Source of the DNA: Solirubrobacteraceae bacterium
GTDB taxonomy: Bacteria; Actinomycetota; Thermoleophilia; Solirubrobacterales; Solirubrobacteraceae
NCBI GenBank assembly: GCA_030447785.1
Contig: JAUJOF010000006.1
Span: 1 to 64,000, forward strand
Direction of reading: 5' to 3'
Length of the DNA: 64,000 bases
Both the position numbers and the translations under genes were made by a program. The number at the start of each line of letters is the position of its first letter. Position 1 is the first letter of the stretch. A model generated the notes under the pieces. The model was not told where the DNA came from. It was given only the letters and a program-made list of their open reading frames with translations, and searched no databases. Shown here piece after piece: positions 37,442 to 40,969 of this stretch.

Positions 37442-38076
37442 CGGGCGGGCCGGGCCCGTCCGGAGAGCGTGCCTCGCGCGGCGAGGGAATCCATCCTCCC
37501 CGCGCGCGCCTCTTCGCCGCCGTCGACCTGCCCGCCGACGTGCGCGCCTCGCTGGCGGCGTGGGGACGGTCGGCGGTCGGCGCGGCCGGCGACACGCTGC
37601 GAGCGGTGTCCGAGGCCAACCTGCACCTCACGCTCGCCTTCCTGGGCGCCCGCGAGGAGGAGCAGGCCGAGGCCATCGGCGCGCTCGTCACCGCCTGCGC
37701 GACGCCGGCCGGCCCGCTCTCGCTGGGGGACGCGCTGTGGCTCCCGCCGCGCCGGCCGGGTGTGCTCACCGTCGCCGTGAACGAGGAGGAGGGCGGCGCG
37801 CTGGGATGGTTGCAGCGGGCGGTGGTGGAGGCGCTGGTGGCCGGAGCGGCCTTCGAGCCCGAGACGCGCCCCTTCCGCGCGCACGTGACAGTCGCCCGCG
37901 TGCGCGCGCGTCAGCGACCCCGGGAGGTCGCGCTCCCCGCCCCGCCGAAGGCGACCTTCCGCCCACCCTCGCTCACCCTCTACCGCTCGCGCACCGGCCC
38001 GGGCGGCGCGCGCTACGAGCCGCTGGCGCGGGTCTCGCTCGCGGACCGTCCGTCTGTTCGCCGGTCAGATGGGTAA
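37438..38076 (+). CDS. thpR: RNA 2',3'-cyclic phosphodiesterase (2H family)
   Basis: [22 protein letters not shown] (HxT), [11 protein letters not shown] (HxT); GTGA overlap with cinA. Confidence 0.88.
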
Positions 38077-38112
38077 CATCGCGCCATCTTTGGTCCTCGG
38101 GAGGGATGCTTC

Positions 38113-38730
38113 ATGCGGCAAGGCGGGATCCGACGGAACGTGCTGGGACTCGCGGCCGCGGGAGCGGCGGCGATCGGCCTTGGTGCCTGCGGCGGCGGCG
38201 GCTCGGCCATGCAGATGCCGCCCCCGCCGGATCCGGTGATGATGGCCCTGCAGGCGCCCGGCGTGCGCACCGTGGTGGTCCCACGTCAGTCCGACGACCT
38301 CACCGTCGTCGTCCCACCGTGCGGCCTCTCCCAGCTCGACCAGGAGACCACCGAGACCCCGCCGGGCTCCAACAAGGTCGTCGTTCCCAAGAGCTCGCTC
38401 GACCAGACCATCGCCGTGCAGCCCTGCATGCAGGGCGTTCAGAACGTCGGGCAGGCCAGCACCGTGCTGCTTAGCCCGGGCAGCTCGCAGTCACCGGGAG
38501 GCCAGCAGAGCGGTCAGACCCAGAACCAGCTCCTGCTGCCCGAGGACAGCAACATCGAGCGGCTCATCGTGCCGCCGTGCCTGGTCATCATGGCCAGCTC
38601 GAGCAGCTCGAGCAGCTCGGGCGGTCAACCGGGGGCTACCGACCAGGCCCTTCCCAGCTCCGGCGACGGGGGCACGGTCGTGGCGCCGCCCTGCCAGGTG
38701 TCGATGACCAGCAGCAGCAGCGGCGGCTAG
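38113..38730 (+). CDS. secreted lipoprotein with repeated VPPC motifs (unknown family)
   Basis: lipobox IGLGACGGG; repeats RTVVVPRQSDDLTVVVPPC, NKVVVPKSSLDQTIAVQPC, NQLLLPEDSNIERLIVPPC, GGTVVAPPC; SD GGGAGGGA. Confidence 0.7.
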   Translation: MRQGGIRRNVLGLAAAGAAAIGLGACGGGGSAMQMPPPPDPVMMALQAPGVRTVVVPRQSDDLTVVVPPCGLSQLDQETTETPPGSNKVVVPKSSLDQTIAVQPCMQGVQNVGQASTVLLSPGSSQSPGGQQSGQTQNQLLLPEDSNIERLIVPPCLVIMASSSSSSSSGGQPGATDQALPSSGDGGTVVAPPCQVSMTSSSSGG

Positions 38731-38740
38731 GGCGCGCCCC

Positions 38741-39304
38741 GTGGTGACCAACCGGGTGCCCTGGGTCGTCGGGGGAAGCCTCATCGTGCTCTTCGTGCTC
38801 GGCGCCCTCGTGTTCGGGAGCGGAAGCGGAGAGGAGATGGCGATGCCCGACCCGGCCTCCCTGCCCGAGAGCGCCCGCGCGGTGAAGCTGCCCGGGGAGC
38901 GGGCGTACACGGTGGTCGTGCCGCCGTGCGGCACGCAGGCCGAGGCGACGGTCCAGGACGCCGAGCGCGACCAGGCCACTCCGGGAGCGACCCGGCTCAC
39001 CGCGCCCGCCGGCGAGGGGGTCACCACCGTGCTGGTGCCCCACTGCCAACCCGGGACGGGAGCCACCAACGCCGGGGGCGACCTTCCCTCCGCCGCCTTC
39101 GTGCTGGCCGGGGACGAGCGCGCCGGAGAGGCGCAGGGCACCCTCAGCACGGACGGCGCCATCGCCCGCTCCCAGGTGCTCCTGCCCGCCGGCTCCGAGG
39201 TGGAGACGGTCGTGGTACCACCCTGCCAACGGTCCACCGCCGGCGGCGACGTGGTGCTCGACGCCGAGGAGGGCTCCGACACCGCCGTGGCACCCTCCTG
39301 CTAG
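38741..39304 (+). CDS. membrane-anchored protein with repeated VPPC motifs, apparent paralogue of 38113..38730
   Basis: single N-terminal TM; RAVKLPGERAYTVVVPPC, TRLTAPAGEGVTTVLVPHC, SQVLLPAGSEVETVVVPPC, SDTAVAPSC-stop. Confidence 0.7.
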   Translation: MVTNRVPWVVGGSLIVLFVLGALVFGSGSGEEMAMPDPASLPESARAVKLPGERAYTVVVPPCGTQAEATVQDAERDQATPGATRLTAPAGEGVTTVLVPHCQPGTGATNAGGDLPSAAFVLAGDERAGEAQGTLSTDGAIARSQVLLPAGSEVETVVVPPCQRSTAGGDVVLDAEEGSDTAVAPSC

Positions 39305-39325
39305 GCCGGGGCCACCAGCGACCTC

Positions 39326-40780
39326 CTAGGCCCCCAGATCCAGAGGCTGAGGGGAGCGCGTGAGCGCCGGGCTGCGACGCCGGGCGCGGACGGCGGCGAC
39401 CAGCCCGCACAGACCCAGCGCGGCGGCGGCGCCGAGCGGACCGAAGCCCGGCACCGCGGTGCGCGCGCTGAACTCCACCGTGGCCACGGGGATGACCAGA
39501 AGCGTCCCGGCCACCAGCACGAAGACGATCGAGGCATGGCGGAGCAGGCCGCGGGTCAGCAGGGGCGCCCCGGCAGCGAGCGCAGCCAGGGCGAGGAACA
39601 GCGCTCCCTGCACGCGGGTGACGGACTCCCAGCCGCGCAGCGCGCTCAGGAGGGTGCGGTCGGCCGTGAAGCGCCCCGCGTCGGTGTAGTACTCGGCGGC
39701 CACCTCGCGCCCCAGGGTTTGGAAGGTGCGGTGAAACAGGATCTCCCGGTGGACGAGGCCGCGGTAGCTGGGTCCCCCGCCATAGCCGCGAAAGCTCTCG
39801 GGGGCGATGTAGCGCAGCAGGCCTGCCCCGACCTCCTCGGCATAGTCGAGTGGCTGGTTGAGGATCACCGCGCGCGCGAAGGCGGTGACCTGGGCGGTCT
39901 GCTGCCGCGTGGCCGAATGCGGGTCGCCGAAGGAGCGGATGGCCGGCGAGTAGTACCAGTTGAAGGTGTAGTGGGCGGTCAGCGGACGCCGCGAGCGCGG
40001 CGTCGTCTCGCACAGACGCTCGGTTCCGGGCGGCGGGGTGAACGTCGCACAGTCGGCGAAGGGCGCGACCCGGCCGTAGATGTTCCAGGCGCCGTTGCGA
40101 CTGAGACCGCTCTTGCCCACCGAAAGCTCCGCGGCGACCTGGTAGGGGACGAGCACCGCCAGGGCGCCCGCGGCCACCGCGGCGCCGGTCGCCAGGCGAT
40201 GGCGCAGCGGCGCCGCGGTCACGGCCACGAGGGCGACGGCCAGGAGGAACACCAGCGGCAGGGCGACCACCCGCACGCTCGCCGCGGTGGCCAGGATCAG
40301 TCCCAGCAGCATCGGCCAGGCCAGGCCCCGGTCCCCCAGCGAGCGCGCCGCGGCGTACAGCGCCGCCGCCACCAGGAAGGTGAACACCGCCTCGCTGATG
40401 GGCGCGTGCTCGAGGAAGATCCCGTCGCCGCCCAACGCCACGATGGCGGCGGGGATCAGGCCCAGCGCGCGCGGCGCCCCCGTGCGTCCCACCGCCAGGT
40501 AGAGCAGCGCCGCCGTGGCCAGGCCGAGCAGGTGCTGGACCACCACCACGAGGGTGATGCTCGGCGTGATGGCGTGCAGGATGAGCAGGACGAGCGGATA
40601 GCCGGCGGGGCGCAGCTCGTTGGAGAACAGCTCTCCCTGGGAGACGTTGATGTAGCTGGCCGCGTCGGGCCAGCCGAAGAGGCCGGGCTGCCAGGCGAGG
40701 ACCATGAGCAGACGGAGCACCGCGCCCACGGCGAGCACCGCGCCGAGCGCGACCGCGGGTGACCTCCACCCCTCCCTCAT
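39326..40780 (-). CDS. polytopic membrane protein, GT-C/ArnT-like glycosyltransferase family candidate
   Basis: about 10 TM segments; [64 protein letters not shown]. Confidence 0.6.
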
Positions 40781-40969
40781 CGGGGGCAAAGAGTAAAGCG
40801 TCGGCAGCGTGGATGGCCTCTCGCAATCCCATCGCGCCACAGCGGCCGATCGTCACGCTTTCGCCACAGGGCGTCGCACCTGCGCAACGCCGGCGGACCT
40901 AGGTTCTCGTTCCGTCCGGTGGTCCCCTCACCATGGGGCCTCCTTCCGAAGCCAGCGAGGTTCTCCGCC

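What the first reader, a model, noticed from the sequence alone, without database searches (positions are those of the whole stretch)
38113..39304. Tandem paralogues built on a recurring hydrophobic-V-P-P-C repeat, possibly an undescribed envelope protein family
Two adjacent genes encode a lipoprotein and a TM-anchored protein. Both contain 3-4 copies of roughly x-V/L-V/L-x-P-(x6-7)-T/L-V/I-V-P-P-C: RTVVVPRQSDDLTVVVPPC, NKVVVPKSSLDQTIAVQPC, NQLLLPEDSNIERLIVPPC, VVAPPC; and RAVKLPGERAYTVVVPPC, TRLTAPAGEGVTTVLVPHC, SQVLLPAGSEVETVVVPPC, TAVAPSC at the C-terminus. Ser/Gly/Gln-rich spacers separate the units. Regularly spaced exported Cys could form disulfides, bind metal/heme, or crosslink partners. 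I do not recognise any Pfam family.
Basis: seen in the sequence. Interest (0 to 1): 0.72.

Follow-up and report, generated by a model that had tools for sequence, protein, structure and literature searches.

The report
Paired four-cysteine hairpin-repeat membrane proteins
A few soil actinobacteria carry a matched pair of undescribed membrane-anchored surface proteins, each built from four copies of a 20-residue unit ending in an unchanging cysteine; the family is real and new, but what it does is unknown.

Summary
Window 38113-38727 (P1, lipoprotein) and 38741-39301 (P2, one N-terminal membrane helix) are tandem paralogues (BLASTP 1e-11). They match nothing in Pfam, NCBIfam, PADLOC or PDB sequences, nothing meaningful in PHROGs, and the fold search gave no hit. 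Profile searches found the same tandem pair in six other genomes of the order, and nowhere in samples of the class and phylum. In all 13 full-length relatives the four unit cysteines are invariant, units R1-R3 are practically gap-free and linkers vary; dN/dS is below 1. AlphaFold2 gives strand-turn-strand for R1-R3 of P1, with disordered linkers. The cassette sits in different genomic places; in the window it lies between thpR and recA, and its phylogeny conflicts with RecA, which suggests lateral transfer. A GT-C-type glycosyltransferase gene is adjacent in four of six pairs with readable flanks. Most likely these are paired extracytoplasmic scaffolds, disulfide-locked through the unit cysteines. 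Disulfides, glycosylation and pairing are inferred, not shown. Amyloid-like stacking, metal binding and free-thiol cross-linking remain open.

The parts
38113..38730 (+). P1: 205-aa lipoprotein with four hairpin-PPC units and Ser/Gly/Gln-rich linkers (with stop codon)
   Evidence: codon-position GC 0.68/0.56/0.90 and dN/dS 0.10-0.40 between relatives
38179..38190 (+). lipobox LGAC of P1 (Cys26); lipobox conserved in all P1 relatives (LSAC, ISAC, LAAC, LTAC)
   Evidence: alignment
38263..38322 (+). P1 unit R1 VRTVVVPRQSDDLTVVVPPC
   Evidence: unit profile hit E=6.5e-7; AF2 strands 52-56 and 63-67
38368..38427 (+). P1 unit R2 SNKVVVPKSSLDQTIAVQPC
   Evidence: E=2.3e-7; AF2 strands 87-91 and 98-102
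38521..38580 (+). P1 unit R3 QNQLLLPEDSNIERLIVPPC
   Evidence: E=8.5e-6; AF2 strands 139-141 and 150-152
38635..38694 (+). P1 unit R4, degenerate: ATDQALPSSGDGGTVVAPPC
   Evidence: alignment; AF2 strand 188-190
38741..39304 (+). P2: 187-aa single-pass membrane protein (GTG start), four units; the last residue is an invariant Cys (with stop codon)
   Evidence: codon-position GC 0.76/0.57/0.93
38759..38812 (+). N-terminal membrane helix of P2 (about residues 7-24)
   Evidence: sequence; AF2 helix 7-24
38870..38929 (+). P2 unit R1 SARAVKLPGERAYTVVVPPC
   Evidence: E=9.5e-5
38987..39046 (+). P2 unit R2 ATRLTAPAGEGVTTVLVPHC
   Evidence: E=4.3e-5
39167..39226 (+). P2 unit R3 RSQVLLPAGSEVETVVVPPC
   Evidence: E=2.5e-7
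39242..39301 (+). P2 unit R4, degenerate: GGDVVLDAEEGSDTAVAPSC, ending at the C-terminal Cys
39326..40840 (-). adjacent GT-C-type (PMT-like) membrane glycosyltransferase, tail to tail with P2; 60% identical relative in the same arrangement in G223
   Evidence: Pfam PMT only below threshold

Best explanation
P1 and P2 are sister proteins held on the outer face of the cytoplasmic membrane, P1 by a lipid on Cys26 and P2 by an N-terminal membrane helix. Each carries four units of about 20 residues. In each unit, strand 1 (three hydrophobic residues) ends in Pro, a six-residue polar turn follows, then strand 2 (Thr and three hydrophobic residues) ends in Pro-Pro-Cys. The units most likely pack together into a small all-beta core, within each protein and probably between P1 and P2. 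The four unit-end cysteines lock it as disulfides, while the Ser/Gly/Gln-rich linkers loop out, disordered and possibly O-glycosylated by the neighbouring GT-C enzyme where one is present. Their role is then structural: an accessory, laterally exchanged envelope scaffold or adaptor pair. Shown here: the family, the pairing of the genes, four invariant Cys, the fixed-length units, the anchors (by sequence) and purifying selection. Predicted: the beta-hairpins (AF2). Inferred: disulfides, P1-P2 contact, glycosylation and the scaffold role.
For: Tandem P1-P2 pair in 7 of 7 genomes that have either gene. Four unit Cys invariant in 13 proteins, even in number, all on the predicted export side. R1-R3 have 0-2% gap cells against 13-23% in linkers, and higher identity. 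In the unit profile positions -16, -14, -5, -4 and -3 are hydrophobic in 34 of 34 units and -13 is Pro in 31 of 34. AF2 places strand pairs in R1, R2 and R3 of P1 with pLDDT about 72-86 in most 10-residue blocks of the units, and most linkers lower. P1 and P2 form two clades at 100/100 support, so the duplication is older than the known spread. dN/dS is 0.10-0.61. GT-C gene next door in the window, G223, G101 and G107. In mycobacteria about 64% of exported proteins are predicted to have even Cys numbers, and DsbA and VKOR introduce disulfides into exported proteins (PMC12421883). Streptomyces coelicolor glycoproteins include many lipoproteins and membrane proteins (PMC6593405).
Against: No experiment. 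AF2 models rest on 6-7 sequences, with pTM 0.56-0.60, mean pLDDT 62.8 and no coordinates in hand, so Cys-Cys distances could not be measured. Foldseek finds no similar fold. No GT-C gene lies next to the pair in G227/G228, two GT-C subfamilies are involved, and the GT-C is common without the pair (36 of 232 genomes have a relative). An unpaired role for each protein is not excluded.
Confidence: 0.45

Rival explanations
1. Self-stacking (functional-amyloid-like) system: fixed-length hairpin units stack as cross-beta layers with linkers looped out, P1/P2 acting as anchor/nucleator and partner, with cysteines stapling the layers.
For: Same formal design as FapB/FapC: tandem paralogues, fixed number and length of imperfect repeats, linkers that carry the length variation, each repeat one cross-beta layer (PMC12392863). 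Strands are almost pure Val/Ile/Leu.
Against: Units are 20 aa, not 38-39. No conserved Asn/Gln core motif. Both proteins are membrane-tethered, and no recognised secretion or chaperone genes lie beside them. No PDB sequence or fold match.
Confidence: 0.15
2. Thiol metal- or heme-binding pair: the four unit-end Cys of one or both proteins converge on a metal (Cu, Fe or Zn).
For: Four invariant Cys per protein. In G227 a CopD-like 4-TM gene (Pfam E=0.007, below cut-off) overlaps the end of P2, and an FTR1-like gene lies nearby in G227 and convergent to P2 in G228 (FTR1 named from reading the sequence, not by a profile).
Against: No CxxC between the unit Cys, no conserved His or Met, Cys 25-72 residues apart. 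Metal-type genes occur near the pair only in one genus, not as a common operon.
Confidence: 0.12
3. Free-thiol cross-linkers: unit cysteines, above all the invariant C-terminal Cys of P2, form mixed disulfides with P1 or other envelope partners rather than internal disulfides.
For: P2 ends exactly in Cys in all seven relatives; P1 and P2 have equal unit-Cys counts and are always paired.
Against: The even Cys number in each protein is as easily explained by internal disulfides; no covalent partner is known.
Confidence: 0.12
4. Low-complexity coincidence or wrong reading frame: not a real family.
For: High G+C, Ser/Gly/Pro-rich sequence; long open frames on the opposite strand.
Against: Homologues in six further genomes, four invariant Cys, gap-free units, dN/dS below 1, third-position GC 0.90-0.93, zero of 20,000 shuffles.
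Confidence: 0.01

Closest known systems
Fap functional amyloid subunits FapB/FapC (Pseudomonas)
   Same: Tandem paralogues; fixed number and fixed length of imperfect repeats; linkers hold the length variation; each repeat predicted or shown as a beta element (PMC12392863).
   Different: 20-aa versus 38-39-aa units; four versus three; each unit ends in Cys; hydrophobic strands without the Asn/Gln core motif; both membrane-anchored; no fap operon recognised; no direct sequence comparison with Fap was run.
DsbA-VKOR-dependent exported proteins of actinobacteria (for example LpqW, LamA)
   Same: Exported lipoprotein or single-TM proteins with an even number of extracytoplasmic Cys (PMC12421883).
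   Different: A functional class, not a homologous family; disulfides not shown here.
O-glycosylated lipoproteins and membrane proteins of actinobacteria (Pmt substrates)
   Same: Exported lipoprotein/single-pass protein with Ser-rich stretches; GT-C gene beside the pair in four genomes (PMC6593405).
   Different: Glycosylation not shown; the window GT-C misses the Pfam PMT cut-off and a GT-C gene is not always present.
Other adhesive or amyloid repeat families held in Pfam (curlin, chaplin; named from memory)
   Same: Exported, beta-prone repeats (curlin) or conserved Cys (chaplin).
   Different: No Pfam family matched any of 13 members at E<=0.01.

Membership tests
Fap functional amyloid (FapB/FapC) | 38-39-residue repeats with conserved Asn/Gln motif | tested here: not met
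   Units are 20 residues, hydrophobic-P-x6-T-hydrophobic-PPC; motif from PMC12392863
Fap functional amyloid (FapB/FapC) | fap operon neighbours (FapA, D, E, F) | tested here: inconclusive
   Neighbouring ORFs read by eye in seven genomes (thpR, recA, GT-C, sulfatase, malate synthase-like, ferredoxin reductase-like, FTR1-like, MMPL-like); none recognised as fap, but no Fap profile was run
Fap functional amyloid (FapB/FapC) | forms amyloid fibrils | not testable with these tools
   needs purified protein
Bacterial lipoproteins (P1) | N-terminal signal ending in a lipobox | tested here: met
   LGAC, LSAC, ISAC, LAAC, LTAC in all P1
Disulfide-bonded exported proteins (DsbA/VKOR substrates) | exported, even number of conserved Cys outside the lipobox | tested here: met
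   four invariant Cys in each of 13 proteins; export inferred from lipobox or N-terminal helix
Disulfide-bonded exported proteins (DsbA/VKOR substrates) | Cys oxidised in the mature protein | not testable with these tools
   needs differential alkylation or MS
Pmt O-mannosylation substrates | glycan on Ser/Thr | not testable with these tools
   needs MS
GT-C / PMT family (window 39326-40840) | match to PMT or PMT_2 above Pfam gathering score | tested here: not met
   PMT 13.6 bits versus cut-off 22.7; the G107 neighbour does pass for PMT_2, 52.1 versus 26.1
Any curated family for P1/P2 (Pfam, NCBIfam, PHROGs, PADLOC, PDB) | significant profile match | tested here: not met
   one unnamed PHROG hit a single member at E=0.004 and an anti-sigma model hit P1 at E=0.006, far below its cut-off

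The most novel reading that the evidence does not exclude
A laterally exchanged three-gene surface module (lipid-anchored and helix-anchored sister proteins plus a GT-C glycosyltransferase). The 20-residue beta-hairpin-PPC unit would be a new repeat fold whose unit-end cysteines staple P1 and P2 into a covalent, glycosylated, stacked assembly on the membrane.
Probability: 0.12. Interest if true: 0.7.

Novelty: new variant of a known kind. Interest (0 to 1): 0.42.

Why it matters
It gives a first description, with a usable profile, of an orphan envelope protein pair in a largely uncultured lineage whose cell surface is little studied. The unit (strand-P-turn-strand-PPC) is a compact, gap-free design with one Cys per hairpin, easy to test as a peptide or small domain. 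If the cysteines staple units or join P1 to P2, it would be a new way to build a membrane-tethered scaffold and a useful module for protein design.

Tried and rejected
Single-sequence P1 search in 61 relatives gave only noise beyond the window. A1 scan of genome contigs found nothing, and A2 had no stretch conserved enough to search with. Weak hits G004, G005, G029, G070, G085, G086, G112, G199 and G221 were judged noise: those read are ordinary proteins or frames unlike P1/P2 and without the four Cys; G070 was not read. Plasmids, phages and viral contigs: none. GT-C as a strict partner was rejected: 36 of 232 genomes have a relative of it, mostly without the pair. Cassette recognisable by base composition: no, G+C 0.69-0.77 as in the flanks. 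Flanking repeats that would mark an insertion: none convincing. Promoter or terminator: none found. Literature: no paper held all the terms for such a protein. AF2 was run only with window sequences and loci fetched by the search for related loci, as its rule states, which limited depth.

Full report
What is there. Window 38113-38730 encodes P1 (205 aa, lipobox LGAC) and 38741-39304 encodes P2 (187 aa, GTG start, one N-terminal membrane helix), on the same strand and 10 bases apart, after rodZ-like, cinA and thpR genes and before a convergent GT-C-type membrane protein and recA. P1 and P2 align over most of their length (E=1e-11, 30% identity). All quoted peptides are real. None of 20,000 shuffles of either protein gave more than one motif hit, against four of four Cys observed in each.

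The unit. Both proteins have four units of 20 residues ending in Cys. In 34 R1-R3 units taken from six genomes (plus P2 of a seventh), positions -16, -14, -5, -4 and -3 are always hydrophobic, -13 is Pro in 31, -6 is Thr in 24, -2 and -1 are Pro in 23 each, and Cys is invariant. The fourth unit is degenerate but keeps its Cys. Units R1-R3 are practically gap-free, while linkers hold the length changes (gap cells 13-23%, Cys-Cys spacing 25-72). A profile of the unit alone finds all six R1-R3 units of the window, and those of G223 and G227. It finds no other place below E=0.003 in 151 genomes, and the two best other places are not relatives.

The family. Profile searches found the same tandem pair in G101 and G107 (the window's family) and G215, G223, G227 and G228 (another family of the order): with the window, 7 of 232 genomes of the order. 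Nothing outside the order turned up in samples of 399 genomes of the class and 398 of the phylum. Named records for six of them are MAGs labelled Thermoleophilaceae, Solirubrobacterales or Actinobacteria. In G228, P1 is split over two contig ends. Pfam, NCBIfam, PHROGs, PADLOC and PDB sequences give no meaningful match. dN/dS is 0.10-0.61 among pairs, so the plus-strand frame is under selection. P1 and P2 are two clades with 100/100 support, so the duplication is older than the known spread.

Genomic setting. Many relatives have cinA, thpR and recA close together, with recA starting within about 150 bases of thpR in some and other genes in between in others. In the window the slot holds P1, P2 and the GT-C gene. 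In G223 the same three genes lie in the same order and orientation beside unrelated genes, with a GT-C 60% identical. Window P1/P2 group with G223 and G215 (support 94/94 and 100/99), whereas the RecA next door groups with the window's own family (96/98; 94% identity to the same-genus genome). This points to lateral transfer of the cassette; ancient paralogy with losses is not excluded. GT-C genes are also adjacent in G101 (both sides) and G107 (downstream, another subfamily), were not seen in the immediate flanks in G227/G228, and cannot be judged in G215, where the contig ends just after P2.

Structure. AF2 with 6-7 sequences gives pTM 0.56 and 0.60 and mean pLDDT 62.8. In P1, strand pairs fall on R1 (52-56/63-67), R2 (87-91/98-102) and R3 (139-141/150-152), and most linker stretches have low confidence. 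P2 has strand pairs on R1 (45-51/56-60) and R2 (84-88/94-100), strands in R3, and a membrane helix at 7-24. No PDB fold resembles them.

Mechanism. I favour a disulfide-locked beta-hairpin core on the outer membrane face, with flexible linkers that may be glycosylated. Export and an even number of invariant Cys fit the DsbA-VKOR substrate pattern known from mycobacteria (PMC12421883), and many glycoproteins of Streptomyces coelicolor are lipoproteins or membrane proteins (PMC6593405). The closest design analogue is FapB/FapC, also tandem paralogues with fixed-length imperfect repeats and variable linkers (PMC12392863), but unit length and motif differ, so it is not filed there. Disulfides, P1-P2 contact, glycosylation and the scaffold role are inference.

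Verdict. It is an orphan, lineage-restricted, accessory envelope pair. The repeat design is unusual, but function is unproven, hence moderate interest.

Noticed in passing
G001:C110:5882-7987 (L153), also G035:C7 (L159) and G054:C7: RecA matches in two pieces (1-213 and 209-345) within one open frame of 732-887 codons: an intein-like insert in recA at the same place in three relatives, absent from the window's recA.
   Followed up: partly
window 38075-40919 and L153-L159: The thpR-recA interval is a variable slot in this family: other relatives carry a flavodoxin-like protein with a monooxygenase-like gene, an acyltransferase-like gene, a protease-like gene or nothing (names from reading the sequences).
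   Followed up: partly
L074:10901-11284: A 4-TM, weakly CopD-like protein (Pfam E=0.007, below cut-off) overlaps the end of P2 by four bases in G227 only.
   Followed up: no
window 39326-40840, L073:1283-2740, L051:2517-4034: This GT-C subfamily shares a motif FA(D/N)C..FTPPPGT..LC with two Cys, conserved even at 31% identity.
   Followed up: no
L051:4252-4911 and L052:8949-9650: P1 of G101/G107 has poly-Ser linkers of up to about 20 residues (30-31% Ser overall) and a GT-C gene directly downstream on the same strand.
   Followed up: no
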